Origin: Candidatus Peribacteria bacterium
GTDB taxonomy: Bacteria; Patescibacteriota; Gracilibacteria; Peribacterales; Peribacteraceae
NCBI GenBank assembly: GCA_028286915.1
Contig: JAQBQQ010000019.1
Span: 1-53,228 of the forward strand
Length of the DNA: 53,228 nucleotides
Direction: 5' to 3'
Of the stretch, positions 8,845-36,416 are shown piece by piece (positions within the stretch are counted from its first letter, which is position 1; each line of letters begins with the position of its first letter). The position numbers and the translations under genes were made by a program. The notes beneath the pieces are model-generated. The model worked only from the letters and a program-made list of their open reading frames with translations, ran no database searches and was not told the DNA's origin.

Positions 8845-10575
8845 TTATTGCTCATCCACAGAACACTCAACGGCCAACCCGATGGTGCGCTCGGCAGAAG
8901 CGCCGCTGTCGGCACCTTTGGCGCCAACAATAAAGCTGTGAGAATCACCACCGGTTTTGGGAGCTTTGACTGTGAATGCGACAGCGCCTTCATTGTCGGC
9001 GGTTGCGGTAGTCATTACTACGCCATCCACCAGGCCCTGAACGGATTCACCGGGCGCAAAACCCTGGCCTTTTACTTTTACTGCTTTTTTAGGTGGTACG
9101 TACCAACTGTCAGGATCAATGAAGGCATCAAAGCCACCAAGGCCCAGAGACAATGTGGTGGAAGCTTTACTGGCATCACCGGTAAATGTGTAATCCAGAC
9201 TGCCTTTTGCATTTAACGGAATTTTGATGGCGTCCGGTGCCTCAAATGCGCCAAGGCTGTCTGCGGTAAAATCCATAATGAATGTTCCCGCACCATTGGT
9301 GAGTTTCACTTTCTCATCCGGCGCAAAACCGGTCCCGCTAAAGCCGATTTTCTGACCGGGCAACGCCCAAAAAGTGGATGGCGTAATGCCGGGTGAAAAC
9401 CCGCCGACGGAAATGGAGAATGAAACCGTGGCGCCGCTGGTCATGCCTTTCAGGCGGAAATCCTGCGCACCTTCGGCGCCGAACGGCAGCTTGATGGCAT
9501 TGTCAGCCGACACGTTGCCCTTGCCATCAGCCGTAAAACTGAAGAGCGTGGCATCGGTCGCGCTTAGTAATGTAACTTTCTCATCCGGCGCAAAGCCACT
9601 GCCAGAAATACCGATTGTCTGTCCCGGCACGCCAAAGTACGCGGACGGAACGACGCCGGGCGAAAACCCGCCGATAGAAATGGAGAATGACGCAATGGCG
9701 CCGCTGGTCATGCCTTTCAGCCGGAATTCCAGCGAATTTTCCGCACCATACGGCAGCTTTAGGGCGCTATCAGCCGAGACATTGCCCATGCCATCAGCCG
9801 TTACAGTAGAGAGTTCCGTACCGGCGGCATTTATCAGTTTTACTGTTTCACCGGGCGAAAAGCCGCTGCCCGATACGCCAATAGTCTGGCCCGGCACGCC
9901 AAAATAGGCGGACGGAACGGCGCCGGGGAAGAAGCCTCCCACAGTGACAGTGAATTCTGTTACCGAGCCGCTCATCTGGCCCGTAAGGTGGTACGTAAGA
10001 CTATTGCCTGCGGCACTTAATGGAACAGTAACGGCGCCGGCCACACTAAAACTGCCGGCCTTATCGGCATGAAGCGTGGCGATTGATTCACTGGAGCCGC
10101 CTACCGTGACAAAGATATCTTCATTCGGCGCAAAGTTGGTACCGCTCAGGCCAAGCTTCTGGCCCGGAAGCAGCCACCACTCGGACGGCGACGCGTCGGG
10201 CGAGAAACCATTGATATAAAAAGCAGTGCGCACGTCCGTACCACCGGGAATGGCAGCTATGACCGGGTAGGAACCGGCCGGCCGCTGGGGCACGGTAATC
10301 GCCGGACTGGTGAATGAGCCATCTTCCGCAACCGTGGCATTCACAGTCACGCCCTGGAGCGTAACGGGAATACTGTCGCCGGCGTGAAAGCCGGAACCGG
10401 TTACCGTTAGTCCGCTACCCGGGCTGCCCGAATACACATCCAATACAATATATTCTCCTGCGGCATATGCCATGTGAACCGCGGAGGTAGCAGCGGTGCC
10501 GACAGTCGTGCAAAAAATAATAGTCGCCATAGCCCCGGCGCGCAGCCTGGCTGGCCGCCAAACATTCTCAAACAT
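8845..10575 (-). CDS. Secreted repeat protein with about 89-aa TIG/Ig-like repeats
   Basis: Signal peptide (MFENVWRPARLRAGAMATIIFCTTVGTAATSAVHMAYAAG) and repeats of GGFSPGxxPSxYFxxPGQxIGxSGxGFAPDEKV. Confidence 0.85.
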   Translation of the reverse strand: MFENVWRPARLRAGAMATIIFCTTVGTAATSAVHMAYAAGEYIVLDVYSGSPGSGLTVTGSGFHAGDSIPVTLQGVTVNATVAEDGSFTSPAITVPQRPAGSYPVIAAIPGGTDVRTAFYINGFSPDASPSEWWLLPGQKLGLSGTNFAPNEDIFVTVGGSSESIATLHADKAGSFSVAGAVTVPLSAAGNSLTYHLTGQMSGSVTEFTVTVGGFFPGAVPSAYFGVPGQTIGVSGSGFSPGETVKLINAAGTELSTVTADGMGNVSADSALKLPYGAENSLEFRLKGMTSGAIASFSISIGGFSPGVVPSAYFGVPGQTIGISGSGFAPDEKVTLLSATDATLFSFTADGKGNVSADNAIKLPFGAEGAQDFRLKGMTSGATVSFSISVGGFSPGITPSTFWALPGQKIGFSGTGFAPDEKVKLTNGAGTFIMDFTADSLGAFEAPDAIKIPLNAKGSLDYTFTGDASKASTTLSLGLGGFDAFIDPDSWYVPPKKAVKVKGQGFAPGESVQGLVDGVVMTTATADNEGAVAFTVKAPKTGGDSHSFIVGAKGADSGASAERTIGLAVECSVDEQ

Positions 10576-10826
10576 ACAAAAGTGGGTAAATAATGAAGAG
10601 TGAATACTCACTGGGGACGCAATGTCTGTATAATCATTACCGCGATTCGTTTGCCGAACAATAAAAAGCGGTTCAGAACCGTAACTGAAACAGACAGACA
10701 GAGCATGCCGGCCCGGACCGGCCAAAAAATAAAAAATACGGCAACCGAATACCCGCTCCAGGCTTAGAACCAAGCCATATTTGCTGATTCCATACAACGT
10801 AAAAATATGCTATAATAGTTAGATTT

Positions 10827-13168: not shown

Positions 13169-14770
13169 TTATGTAACGGGAATAGAAAAAGCATGCTGTA
13201 TGAGAGCGGGTACGTCCAGTACAAGCGCAATCTTTCCATCGCCCAGCGGCGAACAGCCGGCATACAAATTCGCGGAGCGTAACGGCGACGTAAGCGGCTT
13301 CATCATCATTTCCTGATTGCGGATAATTTCGTCAACCGCAATGCCAAACCGGCGATTGCCGTCACTCAGTACCAAAACAGACCGCGGCTCCTCGATGGCT
13401 TCTGTATCCTTATGAAGAAGCGTGGCCAGCGAACGAACCGGTAACGGCTGGCCCTCAATATCCAACACTCTCTTTCCCATCATATGCATGGTATCTGCAG
13501 AAGATAATTGCAAAAGACGATCCACATGAACGAACGGCACGCCGTAGACGCCTTCGCCTACCCGGACAAGAATGATGGGAATAATGGAAAGCTGCAACGG
13601 CAACGCCAGCTCGAACCGCTTGCCGCCCGCTTGCCGTACAAGTGATAAATGACCGCCCAGACCATCGGTTATCTGCTTCACGGCGGACAGCCCGACGCCG
13701 CGGCCGGATACCATACTCACCGTCTGGCTGCTGGAAAAGCGGGAGGAACACAGCAAATCAAGAATGGTTTCTTCGGTTATACTCTCAATTTCATCGTCGC
13801 TGAAGCCGCGATTTTTTGAAAGTTTCTTCAGCTCATTAAGCTCGATTGCCTGGCCGTCATCTTCCACGCTCACGACGACAAAACCTGTCTCGCCGCGAAC
13901 CGAAAGCGTAACCGTTCCCTGTTCCGGCTTGCCGGCTTTCAGGCGCTCGGCCGGTGTTTCAATGCCATGATCAACGGCGTTGCGAAGAAGATGCACCAGC
14001 GGAGTCACCAGATGATCCACAATTGATTTATCCAGTGAAATATCCGTCCCCTGCATGGTGAACGTGACTTCTTTGAGCTGGCTTCTGGCCGTATCGCGGA
14101 CAAGGCGCGGCAGACGGGCAAACGCCTGATCCAATGGAATAAGCCGGCTTTCATTTACCTGGATGAGCAACTCCTGCGTATTCTTTTCCAGGCGGGAGAC
14201 AAGCGGATCCAAATCCAGAACATACTGCGGCTGATCGGCCAGTGTACGGAACTGCTGACGTAACAACGAAAGCTCGCCGGCCAGATCCAGAAGAAAGTCC
14301 AGCTTGCGGGCATCCACGCGGATATGAGGGAGCATGGAAAGCTCATCGGTGACGGCCTGCTCCGCTGCCGCCGGCGCGGCTTCTTCGGTATGGCCGCCGC
14401 TTGCGAGCACATGAAGATCCGGCAGTCCTTCAATGGTTTGGGGTTCGGCATTATTTTCTTCTACGTAGACGAGTGATTGCCGGAGAGCATCAATAGAACG
14501 CAGCGCCATATCAATGGCCGATGCATCAAGCGCGATTTTTCCGTCGCGCGCCGCACTAAAAACATCTTCCAGCAAATGAAACGCATCGGTAAGACGCACA
14601 AACTGCATGGTGGCCGCGGCGCCCTTGCATGAGTGACACAGACGCATGACTTCGGCATAACGGTTACTCGTTACGCCGTCTCTTTCCATAGCCAACAGCT
14701 GTTCTTCCACGGCCGCGCAATTATCGCGGCACTCCTGGAGAAACAATGAAAGATAGGGTGAGGTATCCAT
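13169..14770 (-). CDS. cheA: Chemotaxis histidine kinase CheA (P1-P3-P4-P5, P2 apparently absent)
   Basis: P1 MRLCHSCKGAAATM, HATPase HLLRNAVDHGIETPAERLKAGKP and GRGVGLSAVKQ, C-terminal CheW-like domain. Confidence 0.95.
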   Translation of the reverse strand: MDTSPYLSLFLQECRDNCAAVEEQLLAMERDGVTSNRYAEVMRLCHSCKGAAATMQFVRLTDAFHLLEDVFSAARDGKIALDASAIDMALRSIDALRQSLVYVEENNAEPQTIEGLPDLHVLASGGHTEEAAPAAAEQAVTDELSMLPHIRVDARKLDFLLDLAGELSLLRQQFRTLADQPQYVLDLDPLVSRLEKNTQELLIQVNESRLIPLDQAFARLPRLVRDTARSQLKEVTFTMQGTDISLDKSIVDHLVTPLVHLLRNAVDHGIETPAERLKAGKPEQGTVTLSVRGETGFVVVSVEDDGQAIELNELKKLSKNRGFSDDEIESITEETILDLLCSSRFSSSQTVSMVSGRGVGLSAVKQITDGLGGHLSLVRQAGGKRFELALPLQLSIIPIILVRVGEGVYGVPFVHVDRLLQLSSADTMHMMGKRVLDIEGQPLPVRSLATLLHKDTEAIEEPRSVLVLSDGNRRFGIAVDEIIRNQEMMMKPLTSPLRSANLYAGCSPLGDGKIALVLDVPALIQHAFSIPVT

Positions 14771-22655: not shown

Positions 22656-23030
22656 ATGAAAAAAACAACTCCGCTGCATACAGGCATACTCATCGCGATG
22701 TCTGTAACCATTGCGGCCTGCACTGCGTCCTCACCGGCCAACGTACCCGCCGATACAACCCCTCACAGCAATTCGATGGGAACAGGCAGCGACACATCCA
22801 TGACCATGAACCAGATGACGCAGGTTTTGCAGGGCAAGACCGGCAACGCGTTCGATAAAGCCTTTATCGACGCCATGATCGTGCACCATAACGGTGCCAT
22901 CGCCATGGCCAAACTCGCCCAGCGAGATGCAGGACACGAGGAAATCAAGCGCCTGGCCGGTGATATTATCGCCGCCCAGCAGAAAGAGATAAACCAGATG
23001 AAAGAGTGGCAGAAGGAATGGAAATATTAA
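22656..23030 (+). CDS. DUF305-family lipoprotein
   Basis: Lipobox TIAACTASS; FDKAFIDAMIVHHNGAIAMAKLAQRDAGHEEIKRLAGDIIAAQQKEINQMKEW. Confidence 0.92.
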   Translation: MKKTTPLHTGILIAMSVTIAACTASSPANVPADTTPHSNSMGTGSDTSMTMNQMTQVLQGKTGNAFDKAFIDAMIVHHNGAIAMAKLAQRDAGHEEIKRLAGDIIAAQQKEINQMKEWQKEWKY

Positions 23031-23041
23031 ACGGAAGCACC

Positions 23042-23110
23042 AAGCACTAAATCCTAAGCTCTAAACGTCTTCGTTCTATCAGTAAGTACATTGTTTAGGA
23101 TTTAGTGCTT
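23042..23110. repeat. Perfect 16-bp inverted repeat within degenerate heptamers
   Basis: AAGCACTAAATCCTAA (23042-23057) and its exact reverse complement TTAGGATTTAGTGCTT (23095-23110). Confidence 0.95.
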
Positions 23111-23174
23111 AGAATTTAGAATTTTATGCAAGTCATTGGTTTTATTGTATGATCCATTTCACTCACCTCCCCCT

Positions 23175-24428
23175 ATGAACCTTTCCCAGCTCTTTGCCAA
23201 AACGTCCAAGGATTCCCAGTCCGATGCCAGCAGTAAAAATGCCGATCTTCTGGTACGCGCCGGATTCATAAGTAAAACCATGGCCGGCGTGTACTCGTAC
23301 CTACCGCTGGGCTTACGCGTACTCAAAAATATCGAGCAGATTGTACGCGAGGAAATGGATGCCATCGGCGGACAGGAAATACTGATGTCGGCGCTGTCGC
23401 CAAAGGACTACTGGGAGAAAACCGGCCGCTGGGAAACACTGGACGTACTCTTCCGTTTACCCGCCGCCAACGACACGGAATACGCACTCAACCCGACGCA
23501 CGAGGAAGTGGTAACGCCCATTGTGAAACAGTTCATCAATTCGTACCGCAACATGCCGTTCGCGGCATATCAGATACAAACAAAATTCCGGAACGAACTG
23601 CGCGCCAAGTCCGGCATTCTGCGCGGCCGCGAATTTTTAATGAAAGACTTGTATTCTTTCCACGCCAGCCAGGAGGATCTGGACCGTTATTATGAAATTG
23701 TTCAGGCAGCATACATGCGCGTCTTCGAACGTATGGGACTCGGCGAACTGACGTACCTTACCTATGCCTCGGGCGGGAGCTTTTCGCAGTATTCGCATGA
23801 GTATCAGATACTGCTGCCAAACGGCGAAGATGTTGTATATGTGAGTGTGGAAGCCGAAAAAAAAGGCCAGCGCATTGCCATTAACAAAGAAATTTATGAG
23901 GATGGCGTCACGGTATGTCCGCTTACGGGCGGCAAAGAATTCCGCGAAGAGAAAGGTACCGAAGCGGGAAATATTTTCAAGCTCGGCAATAAATTTTCAT
24001 CGGCATTCGGCCTGCAGTTCACGGGCAGCGACGGCCAGCTGAAAGACGTCATTATGGGCTGCTACGGCATAGGTATCTCCCGCCTTATGGGCATAGTGGC
24101 CGAAGCCATGTCCGACGATGCCGGCCTTGTCTGGCCCGAGGCCATTGCGCCGGCTCATGTGCATATTGTTCCCATTTGTAAAACAACTGATGATGGCGCA
24201 TTCGTGAAGGCCAGAGAGCTGGAGAAAGCGCTGCTGGCACGCGGCAAAAAAACAATATTTGATGACCGCCTGGACGGCTCCGTCGGCTCGCGCCTGGCCG
24301 ATGCCGATTTGTTCGGCCTACCTGTCAGAATAGTCGTATCACCAAAGACGCTCGCGGAGGGAAATGTAGAAGTGAAGAACAGAAAGACGGGAGAAGTGGT
24401 CATGATGAAGCTTGATGAATGCACCTAA
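23175..24428 (+). CDS. proS: Prolyl-tRNA synthetase, short form
   Basis: Class II motifs: ALNPTHEEVVTPIVKQF, TKFRNELRAKSGILRGREFLMKDLYSFH, GCYGIGISRLMGIVAE; 417 aa without an INS-sized insertion. Confidence 0.93.
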   Translation: MNLSQLFAKTSKDSQSDASSKNADLLVRAGFISKTMAGVYSYLPLGLRVLKNIEQIVREEMDAIGGQEILMSALSPKDYWEKTGRWETLDVLFRLPAANDTEYALNPTHEEVVTPIVKQFINSYRNMPFAAYQIQTKFRNELRAKSGILRGREFLMKDLYSFHASQEDLDRYYEIVQAAYMRVFERMGLGELTYLTYASGGSFSQYSHEYQILLPNGEDVVYVSVEAEKKGQRIAINKEIYEDGVTVCPLTGGKEFREEKGTEAGNIFKLGNKFSSAFGLQFTGSDGQLKDVIMGCYGIGISRLMGIVAEAMSDDAGLVWPEAIAPAHVHIVPICKTTDDGAFVKARELEKALLARGKKTIFDDRLDGSVGSRLADADLFGLPVRIVVSPKTLAEGNVEVKNRKTGEVVMMKLDECT

Positions 24429-24490
24429 TACGTAGTACGTAGTACGTAGTACGTAGTAAGTAGTAAGTAGTAAGTAGTAAGTAGTACGAA
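24426..24490 (+). repeat. Heptamer tandem array after proS (TAATACG, TAGTACG x3, TAGTAAG x4, TAGTACG)
   Basis: Read directly; the first heptamer contains the proS stop codon TAA. Confidence 0.97.
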
Positions 24491-24504
24491 ATCTATTATT
24501 ATAA

Positions 24505-24569
24505 TACGTAATACGTAATACGTAATACGTAATACGTAATCCGTACTACGTAATCCGTAATCCGTACTA
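24505..24569 (-). repeat. Heptamer tandem array after queA (minus-strand TAGTACG/GATTACG/TATTACG)
   Basis: Reverse complement reads TAGTACG GATTACG GATTACG TAGTACG GATTACG then TATTACG repeats; the first heptamer contains the queA stop codon TAG. Confidence 0.97.
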
Positions 24570-25607
24570 CACAATCAACATCGCATCGCCAAACGAAAAC
24601 AGTCTGAATTTTCTTTCGATCGCCTCACGATAGATAGTCAGTATCTCTTCTCTTCCGGCAAATGCCGATACCAGCATGAGCAGGCTTGATTGCGGGACGT
24701 GGAAATTGGTAATGAGACCGTCGACCATGCGGAACGTATAACCGTCGCGAATAAATAATTGAGTTGTGCCGCTTGGGCGTGCAATCTTTCCGGCTTCATC
24801 GGCAGCTGATTCCAATGTACGCGCGGCCGTAGTTCCAACGGCAATAATTTTCTTTCCGTCCGATTTCGCCCGCTCGATTATTTTTTTATTTTCTTCATCA
24901 ATCGAATAATATTCGGCATGTAATGTGCCTGTCTCCCATTGCTCGAGCGTAAGCGGCGAGAATGTTCCCAAATGAACATGCAGAGTAACGTACGCAATGT
25001 GTATTCCGCTCTGCTGCAGTTGATCCAGTAATTCTTTCGTAAAATGCAGCGATGCCGTGGGTGCCGCAATGGAGCCGGGTTCTTTGGCAAAAACTGATTG
25101 ATATTCCTCTTTCAACTCGTCACGCGTGAGCGGCGAATGCTTAATGTACGGCGGCAACGGCATGACGCCGAATTCTTCCAAAACAGACGGCAACTCATCC
25201 AGAGGGCAGGACGGCCGTATCAGCCATTCTTTTTCGTTCCGCCCGATGACCGTAAATGAAATACAATCGTTCAGCTGCAACACTTCATTGTCTCGTAACT
25301 TTTTATTGGCAAAGACACGAATACAATCATTGGCAATTCCCAGGTACAGCACATCTACCTTACCGCCCGTTGACCGCGCCAGCCTCAGCCGTGCCGGAAT
25401 TACTTTGGTCTGATTCAATACCAGTATGGAATGAGGCGGCAGAAAATTTCCGATTGTATCAAACGTGAGCCAATCGGTTTTTTTTGATGCACGGTTGAAT
25501 ACAACCAGCCGGGCACTGTCGCGCGGGCTGGCCGGTGACTGTGCAATCAGCTCGGGAGGAAATGCAAAATCAAAGGGCCGGAGAATGTCATCAAGCAGGT
25601 CGGACAT
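24567..25607 (-). CDS. queA: tRNA preQ1(34) S-adenosylmethionine ribosyltransferase-isomerase
   Basis: FDFAFPPELIAQSPASPRDSARLVVFNR, PLPPYIKH, SIAAPTASLHFT, AVGTTAARTLES, LITNFHVPQSSLLMLVSAFAG. Confidence 0.95.
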   Translation of the reverse strand: MSDLLDDILRPFDFAFPPELIAQSPASPRDSARLVVFNRASKKTDWLTFDTIGNFLPPHSILVLNQTKVIPARLRLARSTGGKVDVLYLGIANDCIRVFANKKLRDNEVLQLNDCISFTVIGRNEKEWLIRPSCPLDELPSVLEEFGVMPLPPYIKHSPLTRDELKEEYQSVFAKEPGSIAAPTASLHFTKELLDQLQQSGIHIAYVTLHVHLGTFSPLTLEQWETGTLHAEYYSIDEENKKIIERAKSDGKKIIAVGTTAARTLESAADEAGKIARPSGTTQLFIRDGYTFRMVDGLITNFHVPQSSLLMLVSAFAGREEILTIYREAIERKFRLFSFGDAMLIV

Positions 25608-30992: not shown

Positions 30993-31020
30993 TTGACAGT
31001 ATTTTATATTATTATATAAT
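30993..31020 (+). promoter_or_regulatory. Consensus sigma70 promoter
   Basis: TTGACA (30993-30998), 16-nt spacer, TATAAT (31015-31020). Confidence 0.8.
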
Positions 31021-31394: not shown

Positions 31395-31462
31395 CAATAT
31401 GCACTATAAAAATTTATCTCATACGATTGTACGACGCCGACAAAACGCAGTATTCTTTCCCC

Positions 31463-32659
31463 ATGAAACCACGCCATTTTTCTCTTGTCGCATTTACCGC
31501 CATCAGCCTTGTTTTTACCATGCCTTCTATTTTGCAGGCACAGAACGATCCATTGAACTCATCCTCAGCCGACAATGCATCAGCGGCGCTAAGCCAGCCC
31601 AAGAGTGAATTCGAACGCGGCAAAGTATTGGCCATTACCAAGGAAGTGCCCGACAATTTTGCAGGGATCGACCGTACGGTACAAACGGTCCATATAAAAA
31701 TAACGGCAGGGCCGGATACAGGAAAAGAGTTCGATTTGGAAAATGGAGTTCTGGGCAACCGTAATGATATGCGCCTGAGCGTAGGTGAAACAGTAGTTTT
31801 GGAAAAGCTGGAAAAATCCGATGGAAATATTGAATATCAGGTACGTGAAAAATACCGTCTGCCAGCCGTCCTCTATCTTGGACTTTTCTTCGTCGTTCTT
31901 GCATTCGCATTCGGCGGCATTACCGGCCTTACCTCGTTGCTCGGGCTGGTAGTGAGCGTGTTTATACTCATGTTCTTTGTGATACCAAAAATTGTAGCCG
32001 GCTCCGATCCTCTTACCGTGTGCCTCATTGCCTCTTTCGCCATTGCCTGCACATCGCTATATCTGGCACACGGCTTTCATAAGCGCACGACTGTAGCTCT
32101 TATCAGCACCCTCGTAACGCTTGCTATCTCCGCCATTCTGGCCGTGTCATTCGTGCATATTGCCAAGCTGTTTGGCATGGGCAGCGAGGAATCCATGTTC
32201 CTGCAGTACGGCGTGCTGGACAAAGTGGATCTGCGCGGGCTGCTGCTGGGCGGTATTATTATCGGCTGTCTGGGCGTACTGGATGATGTGACCACGGCGC
32301 AAACCGCGGCCATAGATGAAATCGGCAAAGCCAACCCCAATATGTCGTATCATGATTTACGCAAGGCAGGCATGTCCGTCGGCAAAGAGCATATTGCCTC
32401 ACTTATTAACACACTCGCACTCGCGTACGTGGGCGCCTCACTTCCGCTGCTTTTACTGTTCAAAGTACAGGCCGATTCACCCGCGTGGGTTGTGCTCAAC
32501 AGTGAATTTTTGGCCGAAGAAATTATCCGCACGCTGGTGGGAAGTTCCACGCTTCTGTTTGCCGTGCCTATCTCCACCTGGCTCGCCGCTTATCTACTGC
32601 GGAATGACCGGAATAAAAAATTTGAAGGACGCGGGCATTCGCATCATCATGGACATTGA
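31463..32659 (+). CDS. YibE/F-family membrane protein
   Basis: GITGLTSLLGLVVSVFILMFFVIPKI, GCLGVLDDVTTAQTAAIDEI, ASLINTLALAYVGASLPLLLLF. Confidence 0.92.
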   Translation: MKPRHFSLVAFTAISLVFTMPSILQAQNDPLNSSSADNASAALSQPKSEFERGKVLAITKEVPDNFAGIDRTVQTVHIKITAGPDTGKEFDLENGVLGNRNDMRLSVGETVVLEKLEKSDGNIEYQVREKYRLPAVLYLGLFFVVLAFAFGGITGLTSLLGLVVSVFILMFFVIPKIVAGSDPLTVCLIASFAIACTSLYLAHGFHKRTTVALISTLVTLAISAILAVSFVHIAKLFGMGSEESMFLQYGVLDKVDLRGLLLGGIIIGCLGVLDDVTTAQTAAIDEIGKANPNMSYHDLRKAGMSVGKEHIASLINTLALAYVGASLPLLLLFKVQADSPAWVVLNSEFLAEEIIRTLVGSSTLLFAVPISTWLAAYLLRNDRNKKFEGRGHSHHHGH

Positions 32660-32698
32660 GGTGAAGTATGTAGTACGTAGTAAGTAGTATGTAGTAAG
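32657..32698 (+). repeat. Heptamer array after the yibE/F gene (TAGTACG TAGTAAG TAGTATG TAGTAAG)
   Basis: TGAGGTG AAGTATG TAGTACG TAGTAAG TAGTATG TAGTAAG, phased with the TGA stop. Confidence 0.93.
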
Positions 32699-32835
32699 AA
32701 TATTTTTAATTTTCACTTCCATTTTATGACCGGCATTTTTGATTTTGATGGCGAATATACTGAAATAAAAACAACACCCGCGGACAACAACCCACTCTGT
32801 TTTATAAAAATTTTTCACGATCAACAGGACTAACC

Positions 32836-32899
32836 CTTAATACTTAATACTTAATACTTAATACTTAATACTTAATACTTAATACTTAATACGTATTCA
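32836..32899 (-). repeat. Eight perfect heptamers after the copCD-like gene (minus-strand TATTAAG)
   Basis: CTTAATA x8 on the plus strand (32836-32891), then CGTATTCA up to the stop codon. Confidence 0.97.
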
Positions 32900-35758
32900 T
32901 TCCACCTTTAGCAAAAACTTCACCGGATGAATGACGCCTTTATCATTAAATTCAGCGAAGACGGCATATGTTCCGGCAACGGGGAATGCAACAGTGACAT
33001 GTATATCCGGGCCGAACGAATCCGGCAGGTAACCGTGCAATTTTTCGGCTGGCGTTGCCAGGAGGTTGTCTGGAAAATTCGGCAGCAAGTAGCCGTGCGT
33101 ATGCTGGAACTGACGGAGCGTGGTATCTAGTACGGCCAGGTGCATGGCGGCACTTAAATATGGCTGCAGACTGGTGACAGGTTTGCCGTCGCGCTCCATG
33201 TGATACGCCATATCCACCGGTTTGCCGGCACGAATATGCGCGGGCGCCGTAAGAGCAATGGTATAACCATGCAGCTCTTTGGTGCGTGAAAAATCCGGTT
33301 GTGCCTGGGTTACAACATGCGTAGAACCGCTGACAGACACGTAGAATAGTTTACGAATCAATTGAGACCGGACAGTGGCATCCACGGCGACCATGTATTC
33401 ACCTGCGCGTGGGAACGTGTACGCCAATGGAAACGTGGCCCGCTGCTTCATATCGGCCGTCACCGATGTTTGATCCTCCACATGTACGTGATTGAAGACG
33501 CCGAAATCCTGGCTAATGACAATAATATGCAGAATGCGATCATGATCGCGGCTCAGGTCCGTGACCGGTTTGCCCGCGCTGTCGCGGACAGAAAATTGCC
33601 AGGCAACCGGCTTGCCGGCCACAGGTTCCGGCGTATCGGTAATCATGGAAATGGCCGCGTCTGACGGACGCGTGAAATAGGCGTATTCATTTTGATACGG
33701 AAAATGAAACGCACCGGCACCCATGCCGGTCATGCAACCCGGCAATGCCAGTGCGGATGTCGCCAGCCCGTCGCGCATGGGAACACTCTCGTGCCACAGG
33801 TGACCGTTCTGTTCACACTGCCGCTGGAACGGTGTCATCATACTATGATGGTGCAACATGTAAGCCACATACGTAAAAAGAATAACCTGCACGGCGACGG
33901 CCAGTATGCATGGACCCGGCGGCAAAAGGATGAGGGAACCGAATGCGGATTGATTTTTATGATCAATTTTTGTATTCAATTTTTTACTCTTACAATAAAG
34001 ATATAAAGCCAGAAAAAATAAAACTAAAGCACTAGCGATAGATACCGGCAACAGGCCGCCATCAGTATGGGTAAAGTGGGCAGGAAAGAGCGATGCGGTA
34101 TCCACGGTAAAATGTCCGACTACGTCATACTCACCGCTGCGCTGGCCGGTGACATTCACCGTCCATACGCCGGCCGGCGATAATGATGCAACCGGGAAGA
34201 CGTACTCGCCCGGCGCGCGCTCCACCGCCGCCACCGCAATCGGCCCGACATTGGCATTTGTATTGGTAAGCGAGACTGCGAGTGAGGTGGTATCTATGAG
34301 TTGATGCTTTGCATCCTGCAGAGACACCATAAGCGACGATTCTTCCAGCGGATGTCTGGTGAGCAATACCGTCCCCGGCAATGAAGCACTCGTAAGGACA
34401 TCGTACGACGGAGGGGAAACCGGCGGCGTGGTGATAATTAAAAAGCCGGAAATGGTGAGCACTGCAGCACCAAGAATGCTTTCGGTAAGCAGCGTAAACG
34501 GCAGAGATATCCATCGTTCGGATGGTTTGGTAACAACGCCATTCGCCATGGCAACGGCTTCGGCATCAGTATAAAAAATATGATACATACGGATGCCAAG
34601 CAGCGCGAATGCAAATACGGTGAGCACAGCGCACTGCATACCCCAGTGCGTGGCCAAAAGATTGTGCAGCGACTTTAGGTGCAGCCAGACGATGTAACTG
34701 CCGGTCACGCCTCCAATGGCCAGCGCAACGGAGATAAGCATGGATAACCGGGTAAGAAGCGTGGCAGTGAGCCTGCTGTCTTTGGAGAGCGCCAGTGCCG
34801 GCAGCACAATACCGACAAACACGGCAACGGAGCCGATCCACACATCTTTTCCGGCCACATGTACAAAGTTTATGAAAACAGACAACAGCGGATGAAATGA
34901 CGAAGCGGCGGCATGGCTGATGTAGGCGCGCACATAGAGCATGACCAGAATACCAACGGCAATGCCGGTCCACGAAACAGTACGTATACGTTTTTGCCTG
35001 GAGCCGATGAAAAAAAACGGAATCAGCAACAAGATGGCGAGTATGCCGCGCACCAAGGCGGCGCCACCGGCAGACGTGGAACTGTATGTCCCAACCGCCG
35101 ATGCAAAACTGAAGGCATTTGCGGCGCGCAAGTCATTGGCTCCAATAGTAATAGTAAACGCCGTACCAACGACAATCATGCCGATGGACAGGAACGCCAG
35201 CCGTCTGCCGTGCTTTGCTACACGCATCCGTACGTCTTCCGGAGTGGGCCGCATGAGCCAGAGCAGACAGGCAAGAATGCCAACTAATAGTGATTGTCCG
35301 AAGAGTTCTACAACAATGGCGCTGCCTTCGTCGTAGCGGGTTTCGTGCCGTATCTGGAACCGGGCGTTGCCGCCAAGTGGCGTGGTATCCGATACTGTGC
35401 CAACCGAAAAACCGTACGCGCCGTTGGTAAAGTGACCGTCATCAGCAGAAACAACCTGCCAGGAAACAGTATACGTTCCGGTACCGGTACTACTGATTGG
35501 TGCCGTCAAACGCCGCGGCTCGCCGGGACTGACGGTTACCTGCAGGCGCGTACTTTCACCCTGTGGCGTAAACAGCATTATACTGCTGGCTGCAGGTTCA
35601 ATGCGCTCGCTAAAATCTATGGTTACGTTTGACGGCATGGCGGCCACGACAGATGTTGCCTCCGGCTGATACGCAACAGGCGTCGCATGAGCGGATGCGC
35701 GTCCGGCCCAGAGGCCGGAACCCATGACAGCCAAGGATACAAGCAATACACGTATCAT
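32897..35758 (-). CDS. CopC-CopD fusion with two extra C-terminal YtkA-like domains (putative)
   Basis: N-terminal CopC (SAHATPVAYQPEATSVVAAMPSNVTIDFSERIEPAASSIMLFT), CopD TM region, then two AGKPV...H/HxH...AGxY segments. Confidence 0.85.
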   Translation of the reverse strand: MIRVLLVSLAVMGSGLWAGRASAHATPVAYQPEATSVVAAMPSNVTIDFSERIEPAASSIMLFTPQGESTRLQVTVSPGEPRRLTAPISSTGTGTYTVSWQVVSADDGHFTNGAYGFSVGTVSDTTPLGGNARFQIRHETRYDEGSAIVVELFGQSLLVGILACLLWLMRPTPEDVRMRVAKHGRRLAFLSIGMIVVGTAFTITIGANDLRAANAFSFASAVGTYSSTSAGGAALVRGILAILLLIPFFFIGSRQKRIRTVSWTGIAVGILVMLYVRAYISHAAASSFHPLLSVFINFVHVAGKDVWIGSVAVFVGIVLPALALSKDSRLTATLLTRLSMLISVALAIGGVTGSYIVWLHLKSLHNLLATHWGMQCAVLTVFAFALLGIRMYHIFYTDAEAVAMANGVVTKPSERWISLPFTLLTESILGAAVLTISGFLIITTPPVSPPSYDVLTSASLPGTVLLTRHPLEESSLMVSLQDAKHQLIDTTSLAVSLTNTNANVGPIAVAAVERAPGEYVFPVASLSPAGVWTVNVTGQRSGEYDVVGHFTVDTASLFPAHFTHTDGGLLPVSIASALVLFFLALYLYCKSKKLNTKIDHKNQSAFGSLILLPPGPCILAVAVQVILFTYVAYMLHHHSMMTPFQRQCEQNGHLWHESVPMRDGLATSALALPGCMTGMGAGAFHFPYQNEYAYFTRPSDAAISMITDTPEPVAGKPVAWQFSVRDSAGKPVTDLSRDHDRILHIIVISQDFGVFNHVHVEDQTSVTADMKQRATFPLAYTFPRAGEYMVAVDATVRSQLIRKLFYVSVSGSTHVVTQAQPDFSRTKELHGYTIALTAPAHIRAGKPVDMAYHMERDGKPVTSLQPYLSAAMHLAVLDTTLRQFQHTHGYLLPNFPDNLLATPAEKLHGYLPDSFGPDIHVTVAFPVAGTYAVFAEFNDKGVIHPVKFLLKVE

Positions 35759-36285
35759 GATTGTTTTTTGCGCGAAAATAACAGATCGTAGAACAGGTAC
35801 AGCGGAATCCAGCACGCCAGAATAACGGCACCGATTAATAAAATTTCGCGGATACCGAATTGCCAGCCGCCGCCGACCGGGATAGGAAAGGACGCATCAA
35901 CAGTTTTACCGTTCTGCAAAACATACTCCACCAATAACGTATATGTCCCCGGTTTTTCAAACGAATAACCCATGAGTGTCCGCCCGGTGTCCGGACTGGT
36001 TCGCACCGTCTCCTGGTGCTCTCTGTGCGAGCCGAGCTTCAGCTCCACATCAATATGATGGAAATCGACCGCCGGATAGGGGAGCTTGTCTTCCAGTAAA
36101 AAGAAATCAAACACCACCCGCTGATGCGGCTGCAGCGTAATAGCATCGTACCCGATGTCTATAAGATAGTTATCCACCGCCTTCTCCAGTGACTGACCGT
36201 AGCTGTGGGCACCTGCCACAGAAAGGAAACTCACATTCATGATGGCAATGCAGCCGATGAGAAATGATCGGGAGTAATTGAGCAT
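35755..36285 (-). CDS. Membrane-anchored extracytoplasmic protein of unknown function
   Basis: Signal peptide, beta-rich domain, C-terminal TM (EILLIGAVILACWIPLYLFYDLLFSRKKQS); 4-nt overlap with the CopCD gene. Confidence 0.75.
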   Translation of the reverse strand: MLNYSRSFLIGCIAIMNVSFLSVAGAHSYGQSLEKAVDNYLIDIGYDAITLQPHQRVVFDFFLLEDKLPYPAVDFHHIDVELKLGSHREHQETVRTSPDTGRTLMGYSFEKPGTYTLLVEYVLQNGKTVDASFPIPVGGGWQFGIREILLIGAVILACWIPLYLFYDLLFSRKKQS

Positions 36286-36344
36286 TACCTGCCTATTGAA
36301 GCATGGAGCGGGGGTTTATAAAAGAAGGTAACGCTCAAAATAGC

Positions 36345-36380
36345 CATGGTAGCCGGGGAATTAATTCCCCGGCTACCATG
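36345..36380. repeat. 36-bp perfect palindrome
   Basis: CATGGTAGCCGGGGAATTAATTCCCCGGCTACCATG. Confidence 0.97.
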
Positions 36381-36416
36381 AGCGCCAGGGATCGGCGTGC
36401 CAGTTGGTAAAGTAAC

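What the first reader, a model, noticed from the sequence alone, without database searches (positions are those of the whole stretch)
32657..32899. Second convergent pair (yibE/F and copCD) with the same inward heptamer architecture
After the yibE/F stop: TGAGGTG AAGTATG TAGTACG TAGTAAG TAGTATG TAGTAAG. On the opposite strand, after the copCD stop: eight perfect TATTAAG heptamers. The unit family matches the proS/queA locus but differs by 1-2 bases, as if arrays are homogenised locally while the consensus is kept. The 8-copy block is 56 bp, the same length as the 4+4 block after proS. Inward arrays are near-complementary and could pair across a loop of about 140 nt.
Basis: partly seen in the sequence, partly recalled or inferred. 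Interest (0 to 1): 0.75.

Follow-up and report, generated by a model that had tools for sequence, protein, structure and literature searches.

The report
Inverted pair of seven-base repeat arrays
Two facing runs of a seven-base repeat sit between two genes that point at each other; they are real and belong to a widespread, poorly understood class of bacterial repeat pairs found at gene ends, but at this site the RNA folds no better than shuffled sequence.

Summary
The arrays are real. Left arm 32664-32698: five TAGTAMG-type heptamers starting 4 nt after the yibE/F stop. Right arm 32836-32893: eight perfect CTTAATA (minus strand TATTAAG) ending 3 nt from the copC-gene stop. Spacer 137 nt. Markov sequence gives no comparable period-7 runs.

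They are an expanded case of a genome-wide, clade-wide class: two inverted arrays of the same degenerate 7-mer (sometimes 8- or 9-mer), hugging stop codons. In unbiased samples of this genome and a relative, array length peaks at 30-33 nt (about 4.5 units), mostly without G-tracts. Inverted partners occur near 50/117 arrays (2/117 in controls).

The hairpin reading is weak here: folding z-scores are +0.6 and +0.1. In two genomes facing heptamers match less often than shuffled arms, so arms are near-complementary but systematically mismatched.

Closest precedent: convergent, mostly four-unit GGGAATC heptamers in Xanthomonas (PMC4692102). The same architecture without G-tracts suggests G-quadruplexes are not the general reason for four units.

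Most likely mechanism: slippage-generated, locally homogenised repeat pair, tolerated or weakly useful at gene 3' ends. New variant of a known kind.

The parts
32664..32698 (+). left arm: AAGTATG TAGTACG TAGTAAG TAGTATG TAGTAAG, begins 4 nt after the yibE/F stop codon
   Evidence: read directly; TRF 32665-32696 period 7, 4.6 copies
32836..32893 (-). right arm: eight perfect CTTAATA (minus strand TATTAAG), ends 3 nt before the minus-strand gene's stop codon
   Evidence: read directly; TRF 32836-32892 period 7, 8.1 copies, 100% match
32699..32835 (.). 137-nt AT-rich spacer between the arms; no heptamers
31427..32659 (+). yibE/F-like gene (start uncertain)
   Evidence: PF07907 E=8.9e-69
32897..35815 (-). 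CopC-domain gene, 972 aa from GTG (start uncertain); no CopD domain found
   Evidence: PF04234 E=1.7e-19
24426..24488 (+). second site, left arm: TAATACG, 3x TAGTACG, 4x TAGTAAG, TAGTACG, directly after the proS-like gene
24502..24569 (-). second site, right arm: 5x TAATACG then TAATCCG/TACTACG variants, up to the queA stop
   Evidence: RNA z -2.6 for 24420-24575
23136..24428 (+). proS-like gene (start 23136 or 23175)
   Evidence: PF00587 and PF03129
24567..25658 (-). queA
   Evidence: PF02547 E=8.7e-111
23037..23064 (-). third heptamer pair in the window, left arm GCACCAA GCACTAA ATCCTAA GCTCTAA (family RYHCYAA), 6 nt after a 124-aa ORF
23095..23122 (+). third heptamer pair, right arm TTAGGAT TTAGTGC TTAGAAT TTAGAAT (family TTRGDRY); four units per arm
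   Evidence: RNA z -3.5 for 23030-23130

Best explanation
The feature is a convergent pair of heptameric simple-sequence repeats, an expanded member of a class of dispersed inverted repeat pairs in this genome and its relatives. Shown: such pairs are two arrays of one degenerate 7-nt word set in inverted orientation, usually about 4.5 units per arm and next to a stop codon, near-complementary but mismatched at facing units. Inferred: new units arise and are homogenised by replication slippage in 7-nt steps within each arm, independently of the other arm, which explains the runs of identical neighbours and the two arms' different words (TAGTAAG against TATTAAG). Perfectly complementary arms are probably lost because long perfect palindromes are unstable. 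Arrays persist mainly just 3' of genes, where insertions are tolerated and where the better-folding copies may act as imperfect bidirectional 3'-end hairpins. At yibE/F-copC the arrays have grown beyond the usual length and there is no evidence that they fold.
For: Period 7 is the dominant long-repeat period: 18 runs in own, 52 in G099 and 16 in G029, against about 0 in Markov sequence. Array length peaks at 30-33 nt (4.3-4.7 units) rather than falling off from two units; in own and G099 nearly all arrays lack GGG/CCC, and the G029 peak is weaker once G-tract arrays are removed. Inverted partner within 150 nt for 50/117 arrays, control 2/117. Elements in tandem or convergent intergenic regions lie within -35..+20 nt of a stop in 7/9 (own; null 17%) and 27/41 (G099; null 20%). 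Facing units match less than shuffled arms: own TTRGDRY positions 1-3 (0.43, 0.51, 0.34 against 0.59, 0.60, 0.42); G099 TTGGNAC identical 8/56 against 30% expected, 10 of 5000 shuffles as low. Arms at one locus pair hardly better than arms from different loci (mean -19.5 against -18.7 kcal/mol). No heptamer arrays beside yibE/F orthologues in the ten relatives' loci inspected.
Against: Simple slippage predicts a steadily falling copy-number distribution, not a peak near 4.5 units, and does not by itself put two arrays in inverted orientation or reuse the same words at tens of unrelated loci. Something else (dispersal, or selection for a bound protein or structure) must contribute. In G029 only 2/7 elements are near a stop. 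Loss of perfect palindromes is not directly shown. Allele or read data were not available.
Confidence: 0.5

Rival explanations
1. The pair is a bidirectional intrinsic transcription terminator or mRNA 3'-end hairpin for two convergent genes, with heptamer arms able to pair in several registers.
For: Position just after stop codons; inverted pairing. The TTRGDRY hairpins of the same genome, including 23037-23122, fold far better than shuffles (16 elements, mean z -5.5) and have T-enriched flanks. proS/queA z -2.6.
Against: At the finding's locus z is +0.60 and +0.09 on the two strands. No terminator-like site reported at the arms. Facing units avoid complementarity. Stem formation is not locus-specific.
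Confidence: 0.22
2. The arrays are binding sites for a tandem-binding protein (iteron-like), with four units per arm fixed by the protein.
For: Modal unit number near four, shared degenerate words at tens of loci, nearly invariant positions in each word (C, A and A in RYHCYAA). The Geobacter metallireducens genome paper proposed regulator sites for similar four-unit arrays (PMC2700814).
Against: Several unrelated word sets per genome and units of 7, 8 and 9 nt with similar geometry would need many proteins. The arrays of eight to nine units in this window break the fixed number. No candidate protein was found.
Confidence: 0.12
3. The pairs are mobile REP/REPIN-like elements moved by Y1 (RAYT) transposases.
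For: Dispersed inverted pairs of about 65-100 nt; six Y1_Tnp genes in this genome; the TACGTAG unit contains GTAG.
Against: Within the roughly 1.5 kb inspected around them, five of the six Y1_Tnp genes have no heptamer pair; one lies several hundred bases from a TTGAGTY pair. Heptamer-rich G007 and heptamer-bearing G029 have no Y1_Tnp match. Units have no internal hairpin.
Confidence: 0.05
4. Two unrelated chance expansions.
For: Only two sites in the window carry long TARTAMG arrays.
Against: Same unit family at about ten other places in the genome and in relatives and other phyla; essentially no such runs in Markov sequence.
Confidence: 0.03
5. Contingency (phase-variation) loci acting on yibE/F and copC expression by copy-number change.
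For: A pure eight-copy array is the kind of tract expected to slip.
Against: Arrays are downstream of both genes, not in promoters or reading frames; the other long site neighbours housekeeping-type genes (proS, queA). No strain data.
Confidence: 0.05

Closest known systems
Convergent GGGAATC heptamer repeats of Xanthomonas and GGGGA(C/T)T of Nostoc (Rehm et al. 2015, PMC4692102)
   Same: Heptameric unit, intergenic, majority four units, 70-75 inward-facing inverted pairs per Xanthomonas genome, close to the 3' end of the upstream gene (mean 28 nt), length varies between relatives.
   Different: Units here are AT-rich and in own and G099 mostly lack G-tracts, so they should not form G-quadruplexes; many word sets per genome; arms shown here to avoid exact complementarity.
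Four-unit heptanucleotide elements and paired inverted octamer sites of Geobacter metallireducens (PMC2700814)
   Same: Four tandem 7-8-mers, dozens of copies; paired on opposite strands with variable spacing in the octamer class.
   Different: Other words; presented as putative regulator sites; some inside genes.
TAACTGA direct repeats of Beggiatoaceae, cyanobacteria and Bacteroidetes (MacGregor 2015, PMC4679880)
   Same: Intergenic heptamer arrays with a shared word at many loci.
   Different: Direct repeats, mostly just upstream of start codons; one indirect repeat only.
Heptanucleotide long simple sequence repeats (Mrazek et al. 2007, as cited in PMC4679880 and PMC4692102)
   Same: Seven is the commonest unit length among long-unit repeats in most genomes; slippage proposed.
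   Different: Inverted pairing and a copy-number peak are not mentioned in the passages read; the paper itself was not read.
REP/REPIN elements (GTAG-tagged palindromes; PMC3733652 listed, not read)
   Same: Small dispersed inverted elements near gene ends (general knowledge).
   Different: No internal unit palindrome; no systematic Y1 transposase neighbour.

Membership tests
Convergent heptameric SSR pairs (Rehm type) | 7-nt unit, tandem | tested here: met
Convergent heptameric SSR pairs (Rehm type) | two arrays in convergent (inverted) orientation close together | tested here: met
   this locus; class 50/117 against 2/117
Convergent heptameric SSR pairs (Rehm type) | modal four units | tested here: met
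   class: peak at 30-33 nt; this locus is 5 + 8 units, so expanded
Convergent heptameric SSR pairs (Rehm type) | close to 3' end of the upstream gene | tested here: met
   4 nt and 3 nt from the two stops; class (not in G029)
Convergent heptameric SSR pairs (Rehm type) | G-tract units able to form G-quadruplex | tested here: not met
   no GGG/CCC tract in the units of this locus; rare in own and G099 arrays
Intrinsic transcription terminator | stable stem relative to shuffled sequence | tested here: not met
   z +0.60 and +0.09
Intrinsic transcription terminator | G+C-rich stem followed by T-run | tested here: not met
   no such site reported at 32664-32698 or 32836-32893
Intrinsic transcription terminator | 3' ends of transcripts at the site | not testable with these tools
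   needs Term-seq
REP/REPIN | associated Y1 (RAYT) transposase | tested here: not met
REP/REPIN | conserved palindromic core with GTAG/CGTC tag | tested here: not met
   units are short direct repeats; TTRGDRY pairs carry no consistent GTAG
Phase-variable contingency SSR | copy-number polymorphism between cells or strains | not testable with these tools
   no read data; no other genome of the genus appeared among the relatives

The most novel reading that the evidence does not exclude
Inverted pairs of about 30-nt arrays of 7-9-nt words are one general class of bacterial element, found across phyla, with two built-in rules: about four units per arm regardless of sequence, and systematic mismatch between facing units, giving an imperfect hairpin with a mismatch in almost every unit. 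An unknown process or factor makes or maintains them.
Probability: 0.3. Interest if true: 0.75.

Novelty: new variant of a known kind. Interest (0 to 1): 0.5.

Why it matters
The Xanthomonas work noted that four heptamer units match the four G-tracts a quadruplex needs. The same four-unit, convergent, stop-hugging architecture here in AT-rich words without G-tracts argues that some other constraint sets the number. The avoidance of matching at facing units, seen in two genomes and two word families, is a simple rule that any model (slippage, palindrome instability, protein binding, RNA structure) must explain and that can be tested in the many genomes that carry such repeats.

Tried and rejected
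Y1/RAYT mobility: no systematic neighbour, and heptamer-bearing genomes without the transposase. All-frame stop-codon cassette (7 is not a multiple of 3, TAA/TAG in many words): rejected as a general rule because the common G099 word AAGTTCC contains no stop in any frame. RNA hairpin at the finding's locus: z near zero. Locus-specific arm covariation: absent or reversed, except position 5 of the TTRGDRY word. Conserved yibE/F-copC gene order with the array: YibE/F found in 24 of 59 genomes; ten loci scanned, none with a heptamer array beside the gene (one unrelated GGGTTAT array about 650 nt away in the G029 locus). G-quadruplex: no G-tracts.

Full report
Observation. After the yibE/F stop (32657-32659) come AAGTATG TAGTACG TAGTAAG TAGTATG TAGTAAG (32664-32698); before the stop of the minus-strand CopC-domain gene (32897-32899) lie eight perfect CTTAATA (32836-32891) plus CG. 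The spacer is 137 nt. At 18/21 matching positions the window's only period-7 runs are at this site and at proS/queA (24426-24570), and there are none at other periods from 4 to 15 apart from the multiple 14. Pfam confirms YibE_F, CopC, class II aminoacyl-tRNA synthetase plus anticodon domain, and QueA; no CopD domain was found.

Not two isolated expansions. Exact TARTAYK x3 matches in this genome (1.43 Mb, 48 contigs) fall in this contig and in C37; with mismatches the family appears at about ten more loci, some as short hairpin-like pairs (C37:1355-1440, C43:24170-24213, C8:14290-14340). At three allowed mismatches the reversed-pattern control is itself high (52+57 against 88+88), so the most degenerate of these are uncertain. 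A second word family, TTRGDRY/RYHCYAA, gives 40+31 matches of three units against 0+0 for the reversed control. Its elements have four units per arm in most cases (16 paired elements plus single arms), and one copy is in the window at 23037-23122. Of 145 genomes searched (this one included), 33 have matches to this pattern, and stretches of G099, G007, G035, G033, G024 and others hold many further words. Exact TARTAMG x3 also occurs in cyanobacteria, Bacteroidetes and named Patescibacteria (Daviesbacteria, Yanofskybacteria, Falkowbacteria, Altimarinus); 16 of 87 such arrays have an inverted partner within 150 nt.

Unbiased samples. Stretches chosen without regard to period-7 repeats were taken from this genome (429 kb including the window), G099 (175 kb) and G029 (220 kb); the own and G099 contigs were long ones already known to hold some arrays. 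Period 7 dominates: 18, 52 and 16 runs against 0 to 0.3 in first-order Markov sequence. Periods 8 and 9 follow, clearest in G099, again near four units. Array length peaks at 30-33 nt. In own and G099 almost all arrays lack GGG/CCC and the peak stays; in G029 about half the arrays carry G-tracts and the peak is weaker without them. The only arrays of eight or more units in the own sample are those of this window. An inverted partner within 150 nt exists for 50 of 117 arrays (periods 7-9), a direct one for 12, and a control with another locus's flanks gives 2; some pairs are counted from both arms.

Position. With a home-made gene caller, elements in tandem or convergent intergenic regions lie within -35 to +20 nt of a stop codon in 7/9 (own) and 27/41 (G099), against nulls of 17% and 20%; G029 does not follow (2/7, null 30%). 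Most elements are between tandem genes, so convergence is not the rule. A sizeable minority is called as lying inside genes, part of which may be caller error.

Do the arms pair? At the finding's locus the transcript folds no better than shuffles on either strand (z +0.60, +0.09). proS/queA does better (z -2.6), and the TTRGDRY hairpins much better (window copy z -3.5; 16 elements mean z -5.5) with T-enriched flanks. Yet pairing is a property of the word family, not of the locus: real arm pairs average -19.5 kcal/mol and arms from different loci -18.7. Facing units match less than shuffled arms at word positions 1-3 in this genome, while position 5 is matched. In G099, 8 of 56 facing units are identical against 30% expected (10 of 5000 shuffles as low; base identity 1 of 5000). 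The 15 pairs for that test were transcribed from the listing and cover those with both arms listed. In the finding itself every facing unit has at least one mismatch (TAGTAAG against TATTAAG).

Mechanism. Shown: class, orientation, length peak, position, mismatch rule. Inferred: slippage in 7-nt steps homogenises each arm on its own; perfect palindromes are lost; gene ends are where such DNA is tolerated, and well-folding copies may act as weak bidirectional 3'-end hairpins. Slippage alone explains neither the peak near 4.5 units nor words shared across loci, so confidence is moderate.

Comparison. Rehm et al. (PMC4692102) describe heptamers in Xanthomonas with majority four units, 70-75 convergent pairs per genome and closeness to the upstream gene, and relate the number four to G-quadruplexes. 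The present arrays share all but the G-tracts. Geobacter metallireducens has four-unit heptamers and paired inverted octamer sites (PMC2700814). MacGregor (PMC4679880) describes TAACTGA direct repeats mostly upstream of start codons. No paper on such pairs in Patescibacteria was found in the searches made of the held library, which is not proof of absence. That this genome is patescibacterial is an inference from genome size and relatives' sizes, not a tool result.

Noticed in passing
window 23037-23122: Four-plus-four heptamer hairpin of a second word family (TTRGDRY) just after a 124-aa ORF and before proS; one of about thirty found in the genome.
   Followed up: yes
L226 2612-2682 (G000:C30): A third heptamer family (TTGAGTY) as an inverted pair several hundred bases from a Y1_Tnp gene; the same words recur at other own loci.
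   Followed up: partly
G099 C23 (L348-L355): Octamer and nonamer inverted pairs with about four units per arm (e.g. GTCGAAAA, CGTTATTT, GAATCCAAA), so the unit is not always seven.
   Followed up: partly
L081, G000:C14:13706-13733 and 14227-14254: Left and right arms of one word family about 490 nt apart in one intergenic region, with a separate terminator-like hairpin after the left arm; looks like an insertion in the loop.
   Followed up: no
window 9388-9927: Two tandem copies of a 267-bp unit, 77% alike, inside the minus-strand ORF 8845-10797.
   Followed up: no
window 30993-31020: Perfect sigma-70 consensus TTGACA-16-TATAAT upstream of yibE/F.
   Followed up: no
window 36344-36381: Seventeen-pair hairpin with a four-base loop between minus-strand genes.
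   Followed up: no
L351 11801-11881 and L352 5117-5205 (G099:C23): Long hexamer arrays GGGCTA/GGGCTG on both strands.
   Followed up: no
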